A stretch of 25,123 bases of DNA from a virus: IMG/VR virus record IMGVR_UViG_3300020159_000557, positions 1 to 25,123 of that record. One strand, 5' to 3'. The notes below the pieces were generated by a model. It was not told the origin of the DNA, made no database searches, and saw nothing but the letters and a program-made list of their open reading frames with translations. The translations under genes and the position numbers were made by a program. Shown here piece by piece: positions 210 through 21,775 of the stretch (position 1 is the stretch's first letter; each line of letters opens with the position of its first letter).

Positions 210-767
210 TTATTTATAGATTATTTTTCCTTTTTCACCTGACGGTGGACGAAACTTTTTAGCCATTATTTCTAACTTAGCAGCATTAACGCCATGAAGG
301 TTTCTTTGTGCTAATCGTTTTACGTCTTGTTTATTTGGCTCAAAGACTACATAAATAATCTTATAACCTAACTTTTCAGCCATATTTTCATATGGTAATC
401 GATCTTTATCGTTTAAATTGGTATTGTCAATAACTACAGTTGGTTTTTTCATTAACATACTATCATGAGCTTTATTTATACATTGTCTATGAGCTTCTGA
501 TAATTTAGTAACGTCAAATTTATATTCACCTCCTCTTTCAAAATAATGATCTGCAGAACAAACTACTGGATTTGGTAATTTTTTAATAAAAGTTGATTTT
601 CCAGATCCTGGAAGGCCTACCATAATAACCAAATTCAATTTAACCTCTGCTTCATTCAATTTGAATGTTTTGTATATTTCATTAGTGTATACTTTATTTG
701 GCTCAAACTTCATTGTATGAGCTTCTATATCTTCAAATACTACATCTAATATATCTTTTAATTTCAT
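210..767 (-). CDS. P-loop polynucleotide kinase-like protein
   Basis: This is a 185-residue protein with a Walker A motif GLPGSGKS at residues 51-58 and the motif VIDNTNLN at 112-119. The latter closely matches the kinase half of T4 polynucleotide kinase, which phosphorylates 5'-OH ends of RNA or DNA. A basic segment around RLAQRNLHG (151-159) could be the lid. About 45 residues precede the P-loop, including KLNEAE (36-41), which resembles a prohead-protease cleavage site. The kinase start overlaps the end of the HAD phosphatase gene by 4 bases, so the two are translationally coupled. T4 Pnk carries kinase and phosphatase in one chain; here they look split, phosphatase first. The general P-loop kinase call is strong. 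The substrate (nucleic acid end versus another small molecule) is inferred. Confidence 0.75.
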   Translation of the reverse strand: MKLKDILDVVFEDIEAHTMKFEPNKVYTNEIYKTFKLNEAEVKLNLVIMVGLPGSGKSTFIKKLPNPVVCSADHYFERGGEYKFDVTKLSEAHRQCINKAHDSMLMKKPTVVIDNTNLNDKDRLPYENMAEKLGYKIIYVVFEPNKQDVKRLAQRNLHGVNAAKLEIMAKKFRPPSGEKGKIIYK

Positions 768-1294
768 AAATTTATATGTTCAGCTTCTGTAGTATGTATT
801 ACTTGTAATTGTACTTCAGGATATTTTTCTTTTAATTTACTAACTGCATTTACATTTTTAATAGAGTCGTCAATAAATACAATATCATTATATCCTCTTT
901 TAATTTCCTTTTCTATATAATCTGCTTTCTTTTGCGGATTGGCATCGCCTAAAGCTATTACATAAACCTCTAATCCAAACATTGATTTAAGATATCTTTT
1001 AACTGGATATCCTAAAAGTCTAGCAGTTAAAATAGTTGTTTTAGTAGTTGGGCTAGATGCTGCCTTTTTCAATAATGCAATATTTGGTTTAATTGCAACT
1101 GCATTTTTTATAATAGAATTAAATTCTTTAAAATTAAATACATCTCCTTTTTTAGGGTTATATACAGCAAATTCAGCTGGAGATAATATAAATTTATTCT
1201 CTCCGTTGCGAACATGTATATTTGCTTTAACCTTTGCTAAAGTATCGTCAAAGTCAAATATTCTTAATTTTTTATTAACTACTTCTTTTAACAT
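764..1294 (-). CDS. HAD-family phosphatase, candidate polynucleotide 3'-phosphatase partner
   Basis: This 176-residue protein has the HAD motifs in order. Motif I is FDFDDTLA at 13-20, with D14 as the predicted nucleophile and D16 as acid/base. A motif II threonine sits in TILTAR (87-92, T90). A lysine region NPQKKADY (119-126) follows, and motif IV is VFIDDS (139-144). The cap is small, as in nucleic-acid or protein phosphatases of this class. Similar HAD proteins with LSPAEFAVY-type segments occur in T4-like phages. Its 3' end overlaps the kinase gene by 4 bases, and its ATG overlaps the PhoH stop. The pairing suggests a role in removing 3'-phosphates before end sealing, as the C-terminal half of T4 Pnk does. 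The enzyme class is clear; the substrate is inferred from context. Confidence 0.75.
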   Translation of the reverse strand: MLKEVVNKKLRIFDFDDTLAKVKANIHVRNGENKFILSPAEFAVYNPKKGDVFNFKEFNSIIKNAVAIKPNIALLKKAASSPTTKTTILTARLLGYPVKRYLKSMFGLEVYVIALGDANPQKKADYIEKEIKRGYNDIVFIDDSIKNVNAVSKLKEKYPEVQLQVIHTTEAEHINL

Positions 1295-2353: not shown

Positions 2354-2884
2354 TTATGACTTAGAAAACTTTCCAGTAGCTGGGTCTCTGAATTTAGAAT
2401 AGTTTCTATTTTTTAAAGATTGTCTTCTAGCTTCATATTTTTCCATACCTACTTCATCTCCATATCGTTGCTTGAACCAATCTAAAGTATATCGACCTTT
2501 TGCTGCAAGTCGTTGATTTTCTTTAGTAGATTCTGAATGTGGCTTTTCTATATGGGTTTTACGATTTTCTCGTATACGAGATCGTATTGATTCTTTATTT
2601 GGATTGTATGTAAAGTTATCTCCGCCTTCACCGCCTTCTCCTACATTATAGTATTTTTGAGACTTTTGTGCATTTGTAATTGCAATCCAATGTTTTTCAC
2701 ATTCATTAAGCTCTTCAATTGAATTGCAAGATTCTAGAATTATTTTTTTAAAATTTTCTTTACCGTATTTTATAATTGCTTTTGTAAGTATACGACCAGA
2801 TCCTAAATACTCTGGATCGTTATGTGTGTCCTTTCCAATATATCGCTTGCCGTTAATTAAATTAATTGTTTCGTAAATTACCAT
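2354..2884 (-). CDS. Free-standing GIY-YIG homing endonuclease
   Basis: This 176-residue protein has an N-terminal GIY-YIG nuclease module. The GIY strand is degenerate (VIYETINLINGK), followed by RYIGKD and a YLGSG segment. Then come KYGKENFKKIILE, the conserved E in the ELNECEKHWI helix, and the NVGEGGEGGD loop. Related phage enzymes such as SegA types and I-TevI cut DNA near their own insertion site to promote gene spread. The C-terminal part has basic repeats and ends with RYGDEVGMEKYEAR and FRDPATGKFSKS, the latter like NUMOD-type DNA-binding tails. It lies between the capsid gene and a small gene, both intact, so it is not inside an intron here. It is flanked by matching hairpin and repeat modules. 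Confidence 0.88.
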   Translation of the reverse strand: MVIYETINLINGKRYIGKDTHNDPEYLGSGRILTKAIIKYGKENFKKIILESCNSIEELNECEKHWIAITNAQKSQKYYNVGEGGEGGDNFTYNPNKESIRSRIRENRKTHIEKPHSESTKENQRLAAKGRYTLDWFKQRYGDEVGMEKYEARRQSLKNRNYSKFRDPATGKFSKS

Positions 2885-4701: not shown

Positions 4702-5586
4702 TTATTTTAAACCTGCCAATTTTTTAAATCTATTAGCTAACTCAGTACCTTCAGAAATTACTTGCTTCGCAGGTTTGGTAGATCCTACCGGTTTTGAAGC
4801 GAATGATTCCTTAACTACTTTCTTCGTTGATGGCATTTTAAAGCCTTCAGCTAAAGTTGAGTATACTAATTTAACTTCACGTAAAGTAAAAGCTCTATCG
4901 AAGTTTTCGATAACTTTCATTTTTTGACCTTCGTTTAAAGTGAAATTACGGAATAATTTATTAGAATATAAAAGTTTAGCATTTAATAAATTTACTTCAT
5001 TAATTTTACCTTTTAGGAAACGTATTACATTATACGCTTCTTCTAAGTCTTCGCTAGACTCTTCTTCTGGTTCTTCCATTGTTTCTTCACTTTCGTCTTC
5101 TTCACGTAAAGATCTGATAATTTCATTGATGTCGATGTCTTCATCCATTTCGTCAGTCATGTCTTCAGCTTCTTCCATTGAATCATAGTCTTCAGACTCT
5201 TCGCCTTCTTCCATTGTTTCTTCGTCGCTGTCTTCCATTTCTAATTCGCGGATGATTTCTTCTAAATCTAAATCATCATCTTCTGTTTCTGTAGGAGCTT
5301 CTTCTTCAGCTGGAGTTTCTTCATACTCTTCTTCAGCTTCAGGTGCTTCCTCTTGCTCTTCTTCACCTTCGTCAAAACGTACGTTATTGTCTGCATACTC
5401 TTCAGTTTCAAACTCGTTTGTTAATTCTGCTTCGTCTTCGTCTGAAAGTTCTTCAGCCAATTTAGCAGACAACATAGATTGAAGTCTTGGAGTGAATGCC
5501 TCTTCTAACGCTAGTTTTGCATTGGCAAGAGCTGTTTCTCTAACCGCTTTTGCATCAGCAATAGCTTCTTTTAATAGGTCTTTCAT
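4702..5586 (-). CDS. Acidic prohead scaffold-like protein (gp22 position)
   Basis: This 294-residue protein lies between the protease gene group and the capsid gene, where T4 encodes scaffold gp22. An alanine/lysine-rich helix opens the protein. A very acidic block (roughly residues 48-185) is dominated by Glu and Asp with repeated EEtMEE-like units. A basic, helical C-terminal part follows, with LNEGQKMK, VISEGTEL and the final RFKKLAGLK. T4 scaffold and prohead-core proteins are similarly acidic and helical and are degraded by the prohead protease. I cannot show sequence homology to gp22 by eye, so the call rests on position, composition and putative cleavage sites. Two plus-strand open frames over this gene are artefacts of its repetitive GAA/GAT codons. 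AAGG stands 4 bases before the ATG, one of few Shine-Dalgarno-like tracts here. Confidence 0.7.
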   Translation of the reverse strand: MKDLLKEAIADAKAVRETALANAKLALEEAFTPRLQSMLSAKLAEELSDEDEAELTNEFETEEYADNNVRFDEGEEEQEEAPEAEEEYEETPAEEEAPTETEDDDLDLEEIIRELEMEDSDEETMEEGEESEDYDSMEEAEDMTDEMDEDIDINEIIRSLREEDESEETMEEPEEESSEDLEEAYNVIRFLKGKINEVNLLNAKLLYSNKLFRNFTLNEGQKMKVIENFDRAFTLREVKLVYSTLAEGFKMPSTKKVVKESFASKPVGSTKPAKQVISEGTELANRFKKLAGLK

Positions 5587-7632: not shown

Positions 7633-8244
7633 TTATTTATTGTCAGTTAAAATGTCAGTAATTAAACGATTAACGTTTTCGTATTTATTTGTTTTAATTG
7701 ATCTATCTACAGATTCATTCATATTCGATGGTCGTAAAAATGCTCCATGGGTTGAAGGATTAGATACAAAGTCAAATGCAATTAATTCAAAGTCTGATTG
7801 AACTTCAACTTCTCCTTCTCCTAATTGTTTAACTGACCCTAAACCTCTAGAAGAAATACCTAATTTAATACCACACTTAAATAATTCTTTTAAGATATTG
7901 CCCGAAGGAGTTGATAAAATTTCAACTGTACCTACTAAGTCATTTCCGTCCCAATGCATTTCAGTAATGTTATGAGATACGTTGTTTAAGTTAACAATAG
8001 AAGAATCTGGGTGATCTAACTCTCCTAACGCTCTTCTTTCTTTAATATTAATATCAGAATATTTTTTAGCTTCACGAATCAAGATATCTTTTGGATATAC
8101 TCGACCGTTTTGGTTTTTAGCATCCGCTCTTTGCAATACGCCTTTTACCATTAATCGCCCGTTGTTCTTTTCCATAGACTCACTAATCATTTCCGGAGAA
8201 ATGTCAAATGTGATATAGTCTACTAATAAATTCTTTTTTTCCAT
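7633..8244 (-). CDS. 21: Prohead maturation protease, gp21/S78-like
   Basis: This 203-residue serine protease is expected to cleave scaffold and capsid proteins during head maturation. The family hallmarks are visible: an N-terminal strand KGVLQRADAKNQNGRVYP, the catalytic histidine in LGELDHP (H78), and the serine in LGISSRGLGSV (S131 or S132). These are followed by FELIAFDFVSNPSTHGAF, which resembles the end of the T4 gp21 and related S78 proteases. The usual His-to-Ser spacing is preserved. It lies between the portal-side genes and the scaffold/capsid genes as in T4. The C-terminal ~30 residues (from about NMNESVDR) may be an autocleaved tail. Its ATG is embedded in the upstream gene's stop region (one-base overlap). 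Confidence 0.93.
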   Translation of the reverse strand: MEKKNLLVDYITFDISPEMISESMEKNNGRLMVKGVLQRADAKNQNGRVYPKDILIREAKKYSDINIKERRALGELDHPDSSIVNLNNVSHNITEMHWDGNDLVGTVEILSTPSGNILKELFKCGIKLGISSRGLGSVKQLGEGEVEVQSDFELIAFDFVSNPSTHGAFLRPSNMNESVDRSIKTNKYENVNRLITDILTDNK

Positions 8245-14913: not shown

Positions 14914-15984
14914 TTACTTTATTTTGATAATAGACTCTTTAAGCATATTATCTAATTTTTTATTTACAGATTCTTTTTGATTAAATGGAGGAGCCATGTT
15001 AATATCTCCTTGGTTTTTTCCAGATAATTTATTAGTAATAGCATCAATTTTAGGGCCTCCTACTGAAGGATCAAATTGTGGCATATCTTTACGAGCTGGC
15101 GCATCTGGATTGTTTGGTAAATTTTCTAAATTTTGACCTACTTTTGTTGCAATTGCCAAACGTAATTGATATATAGAGTCGTCTGAACTAGGTTTTCCAG
15201 GACCAACTTTATCTTTTACTCTATCAGCTAACGGACCTAACCATTTTAAAACAATATTGATATCTTTATTTTCTCCAGAAGTTAAATTCTGCATCATTTT
15301 ATCATTAAGTAAAGCACCTGGAGCGTTTGGATCTGTTTTTTTATTAACATTATCCATAATCATTTTTCCAATCGCAACAGAGTTTATCTCCGGGCCTATT
15401 ATATTTGTTTTAAATGGTTTATCTTGCGAAGGAATTGGTTTGCCTGGGCCTAATTCTCCGGCAATTGCAATTTGAGCTGCAGCTAATTTTTCTTTAGTAT
15501 TTTTACCAGGCCAATTAACATCCTTTCCAGATATTTTAGCGTTATTGCCTCCAATTGCGATAGCGCCGGACCAGCGGTGATGCCCGTCAATAATTAAATC
15601 TCCTGAAGTAACTATGCCTACAGCTGTTGGACCCGACGTAATAGAATCTGTAAGTGTTTTTGCGGATCCTAATGGCCAAGAAACAGATTTCATTAAATCA
15701 ATTTCACTTTGTGTAGGTTTAAAATCCATTGCAGCGCCTTGAGCTGTACCAACTGACACAGTGTCATCAGACATACTTCCATCCGTTTGTGGATTAAGTA
15801 AAAGATCATTTCGTACAATATCAGATTGACCTTCAGTAGAATCTAAAAATGCTCTCGTAGCTTCCGGGCCTTTCTTAAATGCTGCAGCAAGTTCTGCTGC
15901 AAGCTCTTCTCGACTTTTTGCTTCTATTAAAATGCCAGCTAATTTTCTAAGTCTAACTGATTCTTCTATTAATTGTTGTTTCAT
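14914..15984 (-). CDS. ParB/sulfiredoxin-fold-like protein with DGHHR motif
   Basis: This 356-residue protein has a segment SGDLIIDGHHRWSGAIAIGG at about residues 127-146. That is the nucleotide-binding hallmark of ParB/Srx-like domains of the DGHHR type, which include serine kinases and some phage modification enzymes. A PVxW-like substrate segment and a Pro/Gly/Lys-rich helical region follow. The N-terminus ESVRLRKLAGILIEAKSREE has an L-I-E/A site, a possible prohead-protease cleavage point. The C-terminus ends with MLKESIIKIK. The domain call is by one strong motif only. The biochemical activity (CTPase, kinase or none) cannot be told. It has an ATATTTAT-type element upstream and begins the run down to terminase. 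Confidence 0.65.
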   Translation of the reverse strand: MKQQLIEESVRLRKLAGILIEAKSREELAAELAAAFKKGPEATRAFLDSTEGQSDIVRNDLLLNPQTDGSMSDDTVSVGTAQGAAMDFKPTQSEIDLMKSVSWPLGSAKTLTDSITSGPTAVGIVTSGDLIIDGHHRWSGAIAIGGNNAKISGKDVNWPGKNTKEKLAAAQIAIAGELGPGKPIPSQDKPFKTNIIGPEINSVAIGKMIMDNVNKKTDPNAPGALLNDKMMQNLTSGENKDINIVLKWLGPLADRVKDKVGPGKPSSDDSIYQLRLAIATKVGQNLENLPNNPDAPARKDMPQFDPSVGGPKIDAITNKLSGKNQGDINMAPPFNQKESVNKKLDNMLKESIIKIK

Positions 15985-16016: not shown

Positions 16017-17156
16017 TTACCAAAATTTGCAGCTCCAATATCTAGCTTTCCATCTTGGACCTGGATTAGTATCACATTTGTGTCTAGCTCTAAATGATTT
16101 TCTCCGAGCTGGGTTGTTCTTTTTTATTTTCATTCCAGGCTCACCAAATCCTACTTTTACTACATTGCCTTTGTCATTTCTAACATATACAGCACGTTTT
16201 CTAGGACCTCCTGGCGTATAAAATGGTTTGCCTAATTTAACTTTTCTCCCTCGATATTCAGCCTCTTCAAGATGAGCTTCGTTTATATTTTTCTTAACAT
16301 AATCTATGTCAATGTCAATTTCTAAACTAGTATTATTTTCTTTAGCTTTTTGATTATAAGGTTTAATGACAAGTTTATTAATATTATCTTTTACTTTCAT
16401 TACTTTCCAATCTTCACCGTCTTTAAAGTGAATTATATCACCTACTTTATATGCCTCATTTATCTTTTTTTTTGACTCAATATAAAGCTCGGTTGGAGAT
16501 GTTTTAGGTTGTTTCATTTTTTTATCATAGTCACCCATGTTAACTCCTTTTTGTTGAGCTTTACTTCCAAATGCCATGTCCTCTAATTCTTTTTCAGATT
16601 GTCTAAAATCTTCAATTTCATTTTCAAACCAACCAGCAGCTATAGCTGCGTTATTCATAGCTTGAGCTACATTGTCTTGATCGGCTTCTGGAAATTTTTC
16701 AAATCCTAATTCATAAAATTCGTCCCAATTATCATCGTTTGCCAACGACTCTAGCTTTTTTTTATTTGATTTAAAAAATGATTCAACTTCATCTTTTAAT
16801 GAAACTTCTTCACTTTCTTGCAAATTTATAGATTCTTTAACAATTTTACGAACTGCCATTCTAACAATATGCTCTTGAACTTTATGATCTAATAAGTCAT
16901 AGATTTCTTCTGGTTCTGTTGATAAAATTTTATGGAATTCTTTATCGGCCGCATCAGCTTCAAATTCTGCCTGTTTTAATTTTTTTGCTTGAGCAATTAA
17001 TGCTGGTTTTGCTTTTTCTTTTTTAACTGGATTTGTCGCATTAACAAATGCCGTTTTTAAAGCTAACATTGTTGCTTCCTCTTGCTGCATTACAAGCATT
17101 TTAGCTTGCAACACTTCCGTTGCCTTTTTTAATTCTTTTGATATTGATGGTGTCAT
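16017..17156 (-). CDS. Multi-part protein with C-terminal RARHKC/YWSCKFW domain
   Basis: This 379-residue protein has three parts. The N-terminal ~120 residues are helical and charged. The middle region is acidic and helical, with INEAYKVGDIIHF near residue 234, where a small beta domain starts (KDGEDWKVMKVKD). The last ~80 residues hold YRGRKVKLGKPFYTPGGPRK, then RKSFRARHKCD and YWSCKFW. The terminal C361 and C376 with H359 could bind a metal. I believe this tail recurs in head-region proteins of large phages, sometimes fused to different partners, but I cannot name the family. INEA segments (about 233 and 291) resemble protease cleavage sites that could release the tail. It follows the GAF-like gene by 5 bases. 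Confidence 0.7.
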   Translation of the reverse strand: MTPSISKELKKATEVLQAKMLVMQQEEATMLALKTAFVNATNPVKKEKAKPALIAQAKKLKQAEFEADAADKEFHKILSTEPEEIYDLLDHKVQEHIVRMAVRKIVKESINLQESEEVSLKDEVESFFKSNKKKLESLANDDNWDEFYELGFEKFPEADQDNVAQAMNNAAIAAGWFENEIEDFRQSEKELEDMAFGSKAQQKGVNMGDYDKKMKQPKTSPTELYIESKKKINEAYKVGDIIHFKDGEDWKVMKVKDNINKLVIKPYNQKAKENNTSLEIDIDIDYVKKNINEAHLEEAEYRGRKVKLGKPFYTPGGPRKRAVYVRNDKGNVVKVGFGEPGMKIKKNNPARRKSFRARHKCDTNPGPRWKARYWSCKFW

Positions 17157-18414: not shown

Positions 18415-20829
18415 TTACTTTCTAAAAGATGTCGCTAATCCACCTAAAATAAACTTTCCAGTAAGTTTAAACGGCTTTTTAGAAATTTTAGGATCGCGAA
18501 TTACAATACCTTCATGTTCTGAAACAGGGCCTAAAGGAGAATTTAACTTTGCTAAAATAGCATCTCCTAATTTCATAGTAGCCATGTAAGTTACAAACCC
18601 ATCTACAGCAGCTTTGTAATCTTTAGGATCTGCAATATATTCTGGCAATGGAGTACCTTCGGAAATTTTAATTAAAACATCTTTTGACAATGCAGAAATT
18701 CTTTTACCGTCTACTGTTTTAATTTCATTATCTGGAATGACTGTTTGTGCTAACCATTGAGAAAGAGTTTTAGTTTCTTTTTTATCTCCGTAATTAACAG
18801 TGTATTTTTTATTTAAAGCTCCTGTTAAATCAGGCTCTCCATCTAATGTAGTTGGAATAGAACCTAAAACTTCATATCCATTTTCAGATGCTATTGGAAC
18901 TAAATTATTTAATAAATCTTGTAAAGCTGTTTTAGAATATTTAATTTCTTTTGTTGCTCTTCGTTTCGGAGTTACTTGCTCAATTTCTAATAATCCGTGT
19001 ACTGCTAAAAAATTCTTATTATAAGATAACACGTTTGTCGAACCTGCTACATATTCCAAGTTAAACATGATATTTGGATTGTCCCAAAGTCCTAATTTTT
19101 TAAGAGCTGGCGTAATTGCAGGTAAAGAGTCATTGAAAATATCTAATACAGTTCCTCCTACTTTAATCATTCCATGACCAGCACCGAAACGATCTTCTAA
19201 TTCTGCTTTGGTAATACCTTTAACATCTAAAGGTTTATTTGAACCTCTATCCATTACAAAGACTTTTTTATTATCTAAAGTAATTAAACGAATTGAAGCA
19301 TTTACTCCATCAATTTTAACTGAAGCTGGGCCTTTTTTAAGATATTCAACAGACTGAACAAATACTTTAACTAAATCTTTTCCTGTCTTTACCCAATCAA
19401 TATTAAAGGGATGCGGCATATGACCTCCCGCTCCTCCTTCACTTAATAATTTATTATTTTTTTGATTATGCTCTTTAACGCAATTTGGAACTTGTTTAGA
19501 ACCTTTCTTTTTCATTCCATACTGACGATATCCTGACCAGCATGGATCGTCTTTATCTTTTTTATCTTCTTTTAAAGAAGAAATATTTGGCTTACCATAA
19601 ATTCGCTTAACAATAGATTTGTCTACTTTAGATAATTTTCTTTTATAATAACCATCTTTCATTATTTCCAATCCTTTGTCACCTACTACACCTTTAATGA
19701 CAGCTTCGTCAGTTACTGCATCAATACTTGGATGAGCTGAAAGTATTTGTTCCATTTTCATAGAAGCTTCTATATACCAACCTTTAGATGAAAGCATGCT
19801 AAATAATTTAGATATTAAATCTTTTTTAGCTTCTTTTTTATCATTGGTTCCTAATAAAGAAATTTTATTTCCATACGGAGTTGATTTATACACTATAAAC
19901 GCATCTGCTACGGAATCGCTATCAACATCTTCTAAATAAACTGCTTTGTATTTGCTTTGAAGTTCTGTAAAATTATCTGCCGAAAAATCCATTCCTTGTT
20001 TAGCGTATGTGCTTGTATACATGTCCCAGATAACTTTCATATCATCATCTGATAGTGTAGTTAAATTAAAGTCTTTCCATGTATTTGGTTTCAATGTCGC
20101 TTCTTTCAACTCTAAAGATTCACTCCACCATTCTTTAGTAAAAATAGATAATTGGTTTATTTCAGACACTCTACTGTTTAAATTCTTTTTTTTCATAATT
20201 TCTGCAATAAATGAAGATTTAGATTCTGTTATTCTTTCTAATCTATCAAATATCATTTTAGCTGTTTTTTCATTATACCAACCAAATGCAGCTTTGAATA
20301 ATTTAACTTTTTGGTCTCTAGGTACTGATTTATCTCCTAATGCATTTCGTAAAGTCGTTCCTGACATTTCTCCATATCCTGGAATGTTCATAGAAACGTG
20401 AGGTGCTACTATTAAATAACCATGCTTATCAAATCCTTGCAAATTTGACTTATGTTTATTATATTCTTGAAAATATGAATCAGACCCATCTTTTTTAAGT
20501 CCTATTCTAAACCTAGGATCTTCTTTCATATCTTTTGCGCCTACCATAAATACTAAAGCAGTATCCTCTGGCTTAAGATGTGCTGTAATCTCCTCCGCTT
20601 TATATGGATTCTTTACCTGTACTAGCCTGTCGCTGAAACCGTAATTACTTATTATGTCGTCTTTTTCTTTGAAAGAAAAAGGCGATTTAATCGGGTCTAC
20701 GACGTTTGATGTTATTATGTAACAATTTTGAGCTCCAAATTGTTTTTCTAACCATTTGAATGCTTCTGCATGATGTTTTCCAAATGGCTGAAACCTACCT
20801 GGATATAATGCTATTACGTTTTTAATCAT
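18415..20829 (-). CDS. Multidomain nucleotidylyltransferase plus ligase-like (KxDG) protein
   Basis: This 804-residue protein has at least four parts. Residues 1-165 are a cytidylyltransferase-fold nucleotidylyltransferase with YPGRFQPFGKHH (9-20) and MSGTTLR (155-161). Residues ~245-400 are an alpha/beta region that resembles a GNAT acyltransferase. A conserved-looking motif CWSGYRQYGMKKKGSKQVPNC follows from residue 430. Residues ~470-804 look like a ligase-type nucleotidyltransferase: KIDG at 505-508 (K505 predicted to take AMP), DRGS at 527-530, FNLEYV at 589-594, EGIVIRD at 773-779 and a Lys-rich KKPFKLTGKF at 784-793. These match ligase motifs I, Ia, IIIa, IV and V in order. The substrate is unknown; RNA end sealing or NAD/NMN chemistry are possibilities. 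It follows the fibre gene by 10 bases. Confidence 0.75.
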   Translation of the reverse strand: MIKNVIALYPGRFQPFGKHHAEAFKWLEKQFGAQNCYIITSNVVDPIKSPFSFKEKDDIISNYGFSDRLVQVKNPYKAEEITAHLKPEDTALVFMVGAKDMKEDPRFRIGLKKDGSDSYFQEYNKHKSNLQGFDKHGYLIVAPHVSMNIPGYGEMSGTTLRNALGDKSVPRDQKVKLFKAAFGWYNEKTAKMIFDRLERITESKSSFIAEIMKKKNLNSRVSEINQLSIFTKEWWSESLELKEATLKPNTWKDFNLTTLSDDDMKVIWDMYTSTYAKQGMDFSADNFTELQSKYKAVYLEDVDSDSVADAFIVYKSTPYGNKISLLGTNDKKEAKKDLISKLFSMLSSKGWYIEASMKMEQILSAHPSIDAVTDEAVIKGVVGDKGLEIMKDGYYKRKLSKVDKSIVKRIYGKPNISSLKEDKKDKDDPCWSGYRQYGMKKKGSKQVPNCVKEHNQKNNKLLSEGGAGGHMPHPFNIDWVKTGKDLVKVFVQSVEYLKKGPASVKIDGVNASIRLITLDNKKVFVMDRGSNKPLDVKGITKAELEDRFGAGHGMIKVGGTVLDIFNDSLPAITPALKKLGLWDNPNIMFNLEYVAGSTNVLSYNKNFLAVHGLLEIEQVTPKRRATKEIKYSKTALQDLLNNLVPIASENGYEVLGSIPTTLDGEPDLTGALNKKYTVNYGDKKETKTLSQWLAQTVIPDNEIKTVDGKRISALSKDVLIKISEGTPLPEYIADPKDYKAAVDGFVTYMATMKLGDAILAKLNSPLGPVSEHEGIVIRDPKISKKPFKLTGKFILGGLATSFRK

Positions 20830-20839
20830 TTTATAAATT

Positions 20840-21775
20840 TTATCCTAATGATGCTGTTTTCCAAGCTGTACCGTTGTGTATGTATAATATATTTGAACCT
20901 GTGTCAAAATATATAGACCCAGCCGTTACAGTTGAAGCTGTAACGGGTATTAATGTTGCAGATCCAAACAAGCTTCCTGTTATACCTTGACTTACTTTTA
21001 GCGAGCCTGTTATTTCAACTACTCCGTTGTTTCCTGTACCGTAAGCGTATATTAAATTACTTCTATTAGAAGTATTAGTACCATTTCCATGTATAAATGC
21101 TGATTGTATTGAAGATGATTGATTGTATTGACCTTGTACATGTTGATATAATCCAGATGCTATTGTGTTAAATCCTTCAGCGTGAGAAAAATTTCCTATT
21201 GCACTAGTACTTGTCCCTTCGGCATGAGAAGACTGCCCAGATGCAATAGTCGATTCACCTTCAGCATGAGAATAAGATCCAGATGCTGTTGTGCTATATC
21301 CTTCAGCATGAGATCGAACGCCAATAGCTACTGTAGAATGACCTTCTGCATGGGAGTGGTTTCCAGATGCTACTGTAACATACCCCTCTGTATGAGAATG
21401 ACTTCCAGATGCTATCGTGTTAAATCCTTCGGCATGCGAAGCATATCCAGATGCGACAGCATATTCACCTTCAGCATGAGAATAAGATCCGCTAGTTACT
21501 GTGCTATATCCTTCGGTATGTGACGCATATCCGTATGCTATCGTGTTAAATCCTTCAGCATGTGAAGCATATCCCGTTGCTCGGGTATTGTCACCTTCAG
21601 CATGTGAATAAGATCCAGATGCTCCTGTGTTAAGTCCATTACTTAATGTACCAGCAACTGATACAACTGTTATCAAGCTGCCAATGCCGTTAAATAGTTG
21701 ACCAGATGAAGATATCTGCATCAAACCTTGATACGATCGTGATATAAACTGATTTGATAAATCTTGTATTGCCAT
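20840..21775 (-). CDS. Fibre-type protein with SHAEG repeats
   Basis: This 311-residue protein consists of an N-terminal ~54 residues, then twelve 14-residue repeats at about 55-222 with consensus SHAEG...T.ASG. The last repeat is degenerate (HVQGQYN). A beta-rich C-terminal section ends GSIYFDTGSNILYIHNGT, then AWKTAS. Such repeats are characteristic of the left-handed beta-roll of YadA-type trimeric adhesin heads and occur in phage tail fibres. The protein is therefore probably a trimeric spike or fibre. The DNA repeat unit is 42 bp. It follows the 809-residue gene and has an ATATTTAT-type element upstream. The terminal part probably recognises the host or attaches to a larger fibre. Confidence 0.85.
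   Translation of the reverse strand: MAIQDLSNQFISRSYQGLMQISSSGQLFNGIGSLITVVSVAGTLSNGLNTGASGSYSHAEGDNTRATGYASHAEGFNTIAYGYASHTEGYSTVTSGSYSHAEGEYAVASGYASHAEGFNTIASGSHSHTEGYVTVASGNHSHAEGHSTVAIGVRSHAEGYSTTASGSYSHAEGESTIASGQSSHAEGTSTSAIGNFSHAEGFNTIASGLYQHVQGQYNQSSSIQSAFIHGNGTNTSNRSNLIYAYGTGNNGVVEITGSLKVSQGITGSLFGSATLIPVTASTVTAGSIYFDTGSNILYIHNGTAWKTASLG
21110..21613 (-). repeat. 42-bp tandem repeats inside the fibre gene
   Basis: Twelve in-frame units of 42 bases encode the SHAEG 14-mers. Unit copies vary in third positions and in the residues after SHAEG, so they are old duplications under protein selection rather than fresh ones. They also create a long plus-strand open frame that is not a gene. 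Confidence 0.85.

What the first reader, a model, noticed from the sequence alone, without database searches (positions are those of the whole stretch)
18415..20829. Fusion of a nucleotidylyltransferase, a GNAT-like region and a ligase-type KxDG domain in one phage protein
The C-terminal ~330 residues carry, in order, K505-I-D-G, DRGS, FNLEYV, EGIVIRD and a Lys-rich KLTGK segment. This is the motif order of ATP/NAD-dependent ligases and capping enzymes. The N-terminus carries a nucleotidylyltransferase site with an altered HxGH (PFGKHH) and MSGTTLR. A single chain joining two different nucleotidyl-transfer chemistries suggests a nucleic-acid end-modifying, NAD-related or repair enzyme. The linking motif CWSGYRQYGMKKKGSKQVPNC is unexplained.
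Basis: partly seen in the sequence, partly recalled or inferred. Interest (0 to 1): 0.72.

Follow-up and report, generated by a model that had tools for sequence, protein, structure and literature searches.

The report
Cleavable phage-head polyprotein with ligase-like domain
A T4-like virus of bacteria makes one long protein whose parts (an NAD-synthesis-like enzyme, a swappable middle, and an RNA-ligase-like enzyme) are joined by cut sites for the protease that matures the virus head, which suggests that the parts are packed into the particle, cut apart there and injected as separate tools at the start of infection.

Summary
The ORF is real (minus strand, 18415-20829, 804 aa). Its two end domains hold up. 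Residues 1-203 fold like NMN adenylyltransferases, with HxGH changed to GKHH. Residues 465-804 keep K505, E592, E773 and K788 invariant in 38 aligned relatives from two families 20-25% identical; the AlphaFold2 model's best PDB matches are RNA ligases (T4 Rnl1 first), though global superposition is weak. The GNAT label is unproven. The fused-enzyme reading probably misses the main point. Relatives keep both ends but swap everything between (kinase, HAD phosphatase, DUF192, HNH, small basic modules, or nothing). Junctions carry [L/I]-x-E, the cleavage motif of the T4 gp21 prohead protease; a gp21 homologue is encoded 10 kb away. In P0001: LKE|A (243), LKE|D (421), LSE|G (464). Upstream of the C-domain, P4, P3 and P1 are by far the most conserved positions across 52 dissimilar contexts (E 45/52, L/I 51/52); site density in linkers is four times shuffled expectation. 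Published mass spectrometry finds NMNAT-like proteins in cyanophage virions. Best explanation: a head-packaged, protease-processed polyprotein delivering an RNA-repair/NAD kit. Cleavage, packaging and ligation are inferred, not shown.

The parts
18415..20829 (-). P0001, 804-aa predicted polyprotein (whole ORF with stop)
   Evidence: relatives
20221..20829 (-). Residues 1-203: NMN-adenylyltransferase-like (HIGH superfamily) domain; HxGH replaced by GKHH; SGTTLR kept
   Evidence: AF2 pLDDT about 92 over this part; Foldseek PDB prob 1.00 to NadM/NadD; alignment A4
20101..20145 (-). Residues 229-243 IFTKEWWSESLELKE: recurring [FL]TK/SKxWWxxxL segment ending in site 1 LKE|A244; resembles N-terminal leaders MNLGxWLxxxIITE and MNKLTEWLVKPFLxE
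19567..20100 (-).
19438..19566 (-). Residues 422-464: short basic CWxGYxxxGxKKKxxxxVPNC module, ends in site 3 LSE|G465
18418..19437 (-). Residues 465-804: KxDG nucleotidyltransferase domain, RNA-ligase-like (K505 19315-19317, E592 19054-19056, E773 18511-18513, K788 18466-18468)
7633..8244 (-). gp21-like prohead protease (Peptidase_S77), proposed processing enzyme
   Evidence: Pfam PF03420 E 8.7e-31
4702..5586 (-). gp22-like scaffold with six [LI]xE[AG] sites, the expected fellow substrate
   Evidence: hit to the Mel-JY01 scaffold position
210..767 (-). Polynucleotide-kinase-like P-loop protein with LNE39|A site (651-659) just before its kinase domain; proposed partner
   Evidence: Pfam AAA_33, phrog_505 polynucleotide kinase E 1.8e-14, NCBIfam Pnkp E 4.8e-8, site
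764..1294 (-). HAD phosphatase related to the phosphatase half of polynucleotide kinases; proposed partner
   Evidence: phrog_415 E 1.5e-8; HAD domain fused to the KxDG domain in L096/L097

Best explanation
P0001 is a modular polyprotein of a T4-like phage that is made late, taken into the prohead and cut by the gp21 prohead protease at LKE|A (243), LKE|D (421) and LSE|G (464). This would release an NMNAT-like enzyme, a middle module, a small basic peptide and an RNA-ligase-like enzyme inside the head, to be ejected with the DNA. There the ligase-like domain (lysyl-AMP on K505) would seal RNA ends, most likely host or phage tRNAs cut by defence nucleases, together with the separately encoded kinase and HAD phosphatase; the NMNAT-like domain would restore NAD+. 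Shown here: domain borders, conserved catalytic residues, cassette exchange, site conservation, head-operon location. Inferred: packaging, cleavage, ejection, enzyme activity and substrate.
For: Invariant ligase motifs in 38 sequences of two families; AF2 model pLDDT 87.3 with RNA ligases as best PDB hits, 18 of the best 20 being RNA or DNA ligases and RNA ligases among viral hits; motif IIIa match to the T4 Rnl1 profile, E 0.0044. NMNAT fold, prob 1.00. Junction sites: P1 E 45/52 and P3 L/I 51/52 in clustered dissimilar contexts; 97 linker sites against 23.7 +/- 4.6 shuffled, 64 against 22.9 +/- 4.9 without the last junction, and depletion in folded cores; the same modules start right after the site in different contexts; [LI]xE enriched 2.3-fold near N-termini, p 8e-21, [LI]xD not. 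T4 gp21 specificity L/I-x-E and capsid-targeting leaders (PMC9026906). S77 protease in the window and conserved synteny with terminase, portal and gp21. Kinase, HAD, CCA-type and ParB-like modules in sister polyproteins. Cytidylyltransferase or NMNAT-like proteins in cyanophage virions (PMC3037559, PMC9602691, PMC10665884).
Against: No virion proteome exists for this phage, and the cyanophage protein found in virions is related by fold and leader, not by the same fusion. TM-scores to ligases are low (about 0.24) and no sequence family matches. P0001 itself has no N-terminal leader. A few relatives lack the Glu (LLxCGG, LLLMGG). Tree relatedness inflates the counts. Whether the substrate is RNA, DNA or something else is open.
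Confidence: 0.5

Rival explanations
1. A single bifunctional enzyme works uncut in the infected cell: the NMNAT and ligase-like domains act together, for example the NMNAT regenerating NAD+ from the NMN released by an NAD+-dependent ligase reaction.
For: NMNAT-like and KxDG domains co-occur in both families and as neighbouring genes in cyanophages.
Against: The distance between the domains varies from nothing to over 350 residues with unrelated inserts; the C-domain occurs alone; junctions keep protease consensus. No NMN-binding domain Ia of LigA was recognised, though this was not tested specifically.
Confidence: 0.15
2. Head-packaged cut polyprotein as above, but the KxDG domain is not an RNA ligase: it caps, adenylylates or guanylylates another target (DNA ends, protein, small molecule).
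For: Only the general nucleotidyltransferase motifs are secure; motif V is KxTGxF, not KxK; DNA ligases and the capping enzyme Ceg1 also appear among weak structural hits.
Against: RNA ligases rank first in both libraries and the companion modules are RNA-end enzymes.
Confidence: 0.2
3. The [LI]xE motifs are fossils of gene fusion: once-separate head proteins, each with its own leader, became fused and the sites are no longer cut.
For: Internal leaders that still contain a Met, such as MMKLKSLINE|GG in L061 and SKMKLKDLIVE|GG in L074; the C-domain stands alone with a leader elsewhere.
Against: P3 and P1 stay conserved while the surrounding residues are not, which suggests continuing selection on the site.
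Confidence: 0.1

Closest known systems
Phage T4 internal head proteins (IPI-III, Alt) with capsid targeting sequences processed by gp21 (PMC9026906)
   Same: L/I-x-E cut sites, leader-like segments, T4-type head operon, S77 protease nearby, likely ejection with DNA
   Different: T4 internal proteins are single-function proteins that lose a short propeptide; here several enzyme modules are strung in one chain with a site at each junction, and P0001 has no N-terminal leader
Polyvalent proteins of phages and plasmids (Iyer, Burroughs and Aravind 2017, PMC5512222)
   Same: Many shuffled effector domains in one phage protein, proposed delivery with DNA, analogy with polyproteins
   Different: Those authors describe release by peptidase domains inside the protein; here the sites fit the separate prohead protease. 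The NMNAT-KxDG architecture did not turn up in the passages of that paper that I read
T4 RNA ligase 1 (Rnl1) and other RNA ligases
   Same: KxDG, motif IIIa Glu, EGxV, motif V Lys; best structural matches; local profile match at motif IIIa
   Different: No family-level sequence match; motif V KxTGxF rather than KxK; different spacing and a large insert between IIIa and IV; conserved N-terminal GGxxGHMxHPF
NMN/NaMN adenylyltransferases (NadM, NadD)
   Same: Fold (Foldseek prob 1.00), GRFQP loop, last His of the HIGH motif, SxTxxR
   Different: HxGH is (G/S/C)xHH; no curated family cut-off is reached
Cyanophage T4-GC190 cytidylyltransferase with neighbour T4-GC71 (Pfam DUF6267)
   Same: HIGH-family enzyme paired with a KxDG/EGxV protein; T4-type leader on T4-GC190; T4-GC190 detected in S-SM1 virions (PMC3037559)
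   Different: Two genes instead of one; different HIGH subfamily (PPTVGH/PPTTGH); homology of DUF6267 to the present C-domain is only suggested

Membership tests
Covalent nucleotidyltransferase superfamily (ligases, capping enzymes), C-domain | Motif I KxDG, motif IIIa Glu, motif IV EGxV, motif V Lys, in order | tested here: met
   Invariant in 38 sequences of two families
Covalent nucleotidyltransferase superfamily (ligases, capping enzymes), C-domain | Nucleotidyltransferase fold | tested here: inconclusive
   Confident model; 18 of the 20 best PDB hits are ligases, but E 3.8e-3 at best and TM about 0.24
T4 Rnl1 family | Family-level sequence match | tested here: not met
   No Pfam hit; hhalign to 20 Rnl1 sequences aligns only motif IIIa, E 0.0044
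RNA ligase | ATP-dependent sealing of RNA ends | not testable with these tools
   Needs an assay
HIGH-superfamily NMN adenylyltransferase | Rossmann-type HIGH nucleotidyltransferase fold | tested here: met
   Foldseek prob 1.00 to NadM/NadD
HIGH-superfamily NMN adenylyltransferase | HxGH signature | tested here: not met
   GKHH; last two His invariant, first position G, S or C
HIGH-superfamily NMN adenylyltransferase | SxTxxR signature | tested here: met
   MSGTTLR: T158 and R161 invariant, S156 nearly so
Substrates of the T4 gp21 prohead protease | L/I-x-E sites at the processed borders | tested here: met
   Three junctions in P0001; conservation and enrichment
Substrates of the T4 gp21 prohead protease | Cognate S77 protease in the same phage | tested here: met
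   Window 7633-8244
Substrates of the T4 gp21 prohead protease | Protein present in the virion and cut | not testable with these tools
   Only indirect: NMNAT-like virion proteins of cyanophages
Polyvalent proteins | Two or more shuffled effector domains in one phage protein | tested here: met
   At least twenty architectures by pattern scan, Pfam domains
Polyvalent proteins | Embedded peptidase domain for self-release (seen in some, not all, polyvalent proteins) | tested here: not met
   No peptidase domain found in P0001 or in the relatives scanned
GNAT acetyltransferase (residues 244-400) | Family match or confident fold | tested here: inconclusive
   No Pfam hit, low-confidence model, GNAT folds only at E about 0.1
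Pfam DUF6267 (PF19782) | Profile match | tested here: inconclusive
   No Pfam hit for the window domain; weak collinear hhalign matches over motif I and motifs IV-V, E 0.015 and 0.04

The most novel reading that the evidence does not exclude
T4-like phages of lakes and oceans carry a rapidly reshuffled polyprotein, cut by the head-maturation protease, that preloads the virion with an RNA-repair and NAD-restoring toolkit (kinase, phosphatase, CCA-type domain, NMNAT, RNA ligase) so that repair starts the moment the DNA enters. The KxDG domain, and possibly Pfam DUF6267 of cyanophages, is an unrecognised RNA-ligase family.
Probability: 0.35. Interest if true: 0.82.

Novelty: new variant of a known kind. 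Interest (0 to 1): 0.64.

Why it matters
Hundreds of relatives were counted in the viral contigs (338 and 304 loci), so this is a common freshwater and marine phage arrangement. If right, the prohead protease does for these phages what polyprotein proteases do for eukaryotic RNA viruses: it releases many enzymes from one evolvable gene. It gives a sequence rule for reading packaged cargo (look for [LI]xE-bordered modules in T4-like head operons), a function for an orphan ligase-like family, and a reason why NMNAT-like proteins keep turning up in cyanophage virions.

Tried and rejected
Sequence searches of the C-domain against Pfam and PDB gave only chance hits. Global hhalign to T4 Rnl1 failed; only motif IIIa aligned, and a control comparison with T4 gp32 gave nothing. 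A group I intron as explanation of the HNH insert in relatives: no Rfam match at gathering threshold. A catalytic site unique to this protein in the CW motif: rejected, since the motif recurs with many partners; its role stays unknown. Direct virion evidence for the fused protein: none found in the library; the T4-GC190 lead gave a related but unfused protein. Literature on DUF6267: none. The viral Foldseek search finds a 591-aa cytidyltransferase-like protein of S-PM2 that would be a useful fused relative; I did not retrieve its sequence.

Full report
What the sequence is. The window is a 25,123-base IMG/VR virus record that carries a T4-like head module on the minus strand: gp23 major capsid protein, a gp22-like scaffold, an S77 prohead protease, portal and large terminase. 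The finding's ORF (P0001, 804 aa) is on the minus strand at 18415-20829.

N-terminal domain. The AlphaFold2 model of residues 1-463 is confident over residues 1-203 and poor elsewhere. Foldseek against PDB gives NMN/NaMN adenylyltransferases (NadM, NadD) with probability 1.00; weak matches to Pfam CTP_transf_like and to the NCBIfam NMNAT model agree. HxGH reads GKHH. In relatives the first position is G, S or C and the last two histidines are invariant, while canonical HxGH occurs in relatives with other N-terminal versions (L096, L097, L181). From general knowledge, eukaryotic NMNATs also keep only the last His of this motif, so the change does not by itself imply loss of activity.

C-terminal domain. 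There is no Pfam or PDB match by sequence. An alignment of 38 C-domains from two families 20-25% identical to each other (the window family, 338 loci, and a family reached through Microcystis phage Mel-JY01, 304 loci) shows K505, D507, G508, E592, E773, G774 and K788 invariant. The model of this domain has pLDDT 87.3 and pTM 0.78. The best PDB match is T4 RNA ligase 1 (E 3.8e-3, prob 0.87), and 18 of the 20 best hits are RNA or DNA ligases; the viral library adds more RNA ligases. TM-scores are low, so the assignment rests on motifs plus the consistent ligase ranking. Profile comparison with a T4 Rnl1 alignment finds motif IIIa only (NxE[YF]VA followed by NV or IVL and Y; E 0.0044). I read the domain as a divergent RNA-ligase-like nucleotidyltransferase, not as a member of Rnl1.

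The middle is a cassette zone. In relatives the two ends are conserved while the region between them ranges from nothing to more than 350 residues. It can hold the P0001 middle domain, a helical hydrophobic module, the CW...VPNC module, a GYMS...FPKTV module, an HNH endonuclease-like insert or a DUF6934-like domain; other carriers have HAD phosphatase, DUF192 and ParB-like domains. In the second family the chain reaches 1,200-1,600 residues and puts a P-loop kinase (AAA_33/Zeta-like) and further modules in front of the NMNAT-like domain; one example has a CCA-enzyme RNA-binding domain.

Junctions are prohead-protease sites. T4 gp21 cuts after L/I-x-E (PMC9026906). Of the five [LI]xE[AGSDN] sites in P0001, three (LKE|A 243, LKE|D 421, LSE|G 464) fall on module borders; the other two are ITE|S 202 at the end of the NMNAT fold and ISE|G 724 inside the C-domain. 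In 52 clusters of dissimilar upstream contexts the C-domain is preceded by E at P1 in 45 and L/I at P3 in 51, while positions beyond P6 carry about 0.4-0.9 bits. In 55 non-redundant linkers the sites number 97 against 23.7 +/- 4.6 in shuffles; without the last junction 64 against 22.9 +/- 4.9; the folded cores are depleted. The module APRVPRKKGQHR follows an N-terminal leader in some relatives and an internal site in others. [LI]xE is enriched 2.3-fold at residues 5-20 of 449 clustered N-termini from these loci (p 8e-21), [LI]xD not at all. Leaders such as MNLGxWLxxxIITE|D and MNKLTEWLVKPFLxE recur. These counts are not fully independent because the phages are related; clustering reduces but does not remove that.

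Location. The gene keeps its place upstream of a small zinc-ribbon-like gene, large terminase, portal and, where the contig reaches, gp21, in both families. The C-domain is also found alone with a leader (MIKLKSLIP[KE]AY...SLL[YL]E|GG).

Support from virion proteomics of other phages. A cyanophage core protein called citidylyltransferase (T4-GC190) was detected in S-SM1 virions (PMC3037559), and NMNAT-like or cytidylyltransferase proteins in virions of S-SCSM1, S-CBWM1 and S-CREM2 (PMC9602691, PMC10665884), with the authors' caveat about carry-over in CsCl preparations. T4-GC190 proteins begin with T4-type leaders (MKKFSAFLKE|A; MKTLKFFLE|S). In P-SSM4, Syn33 and Syn1 they sit next to T4-GC71, a stand-alone protein with KWDG, EGxV and a motif-V-like lysine that is Pfam DUF6267. 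Weak collinear profile matches make DUF6267 a possible but unproven relative of the present C-domain. The virion-detected protein is not the same fusion, so this support is indirect.

Function. The company kept (kinase, HAD phosphatase, CCA-type domain, NMNAT, and a PhoH gene in the window) matches the RNA-repair and NAD+ counter-defence sets described for large phages (PMC7824862). The window encodes a polynucleotide-kinase-like protein with an LNE|A site just before its P-loop domain and a HAD phosphatase of the polynucleotide-kinase type. My best reading is an injected repair and NAD kit against defences that cut tRNA or drain NAD+. Activity, substrate, packaging and cleavage are not shown here.

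Verdict. The more interesting content is the architecture: a cassette polyprotein with head-protease sites, a new variant of the known themes of T4 internal proteins and polyvalent proteins.

Noticed in passing
window 16017-17156 (-): A second likely head polyprotein: short modules separated by INE|A (234), INE|A (293) and LEE|A (298), ending in a Cys/Arg-rich phrog_7595 domain.
   Followed up: partly
window 14914-15984 (-): Protein with a leader-like start (LIEE|S, LIE|A) and an IDGHHRW motif resembling ParB-like domains; phrog_2859 match.
   Followed up: no
L008, L022, L064, L090, between the NMNAT-like and KxDG domains: In-frame HNH-like insert with a Cys-rich N-terminus; carriers have LLxC|GG instead of LLxE|GG, and L018/L056 keep the Cys without the insert, like a scar of its loss. 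No Rfam intron match.
   Followed up: partly
L219 1588-2514, L220 1363-2259, L221 1281-2477: Cyanophage T4-GC71 (Pfam DUF6267, unknown function) has invariant KWDG, EGxV and a motif-V-like lysine, next to the virion-associated cytidylyltransferase gene: a candidate nucleotidyltransferase family.
   Followed up: partly
L179 3734-4864; L180 3338-4351: Cyanophage proteins near the terminase genes (T4-GC119) carry the CW...VPNC module with DUF5661/DUF6321/DUF5872 domains; probably the same kind of modular head protein.
   Followed up: no
L039 7928-9023; L041 7928-9023: The KxDG domain is a separate gene with its own leader, downstream of replication-type genes rather than in the head operon.
   Followed up: partly
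window 20840-21775 (-): YadA-head-like repeat protein (SHAEG repeats) just upstream of P0001, possibly a fibre.
   Followed up: no
window 2354-2884 (-): ORF starting MVIYETINLINGKRYIGKD, resembling a GIY-YIG homing endonuclease, next to the major capsid gene, as segD sits beside gene 23 in T4. Identity judged by eye only.
   Followed up: no
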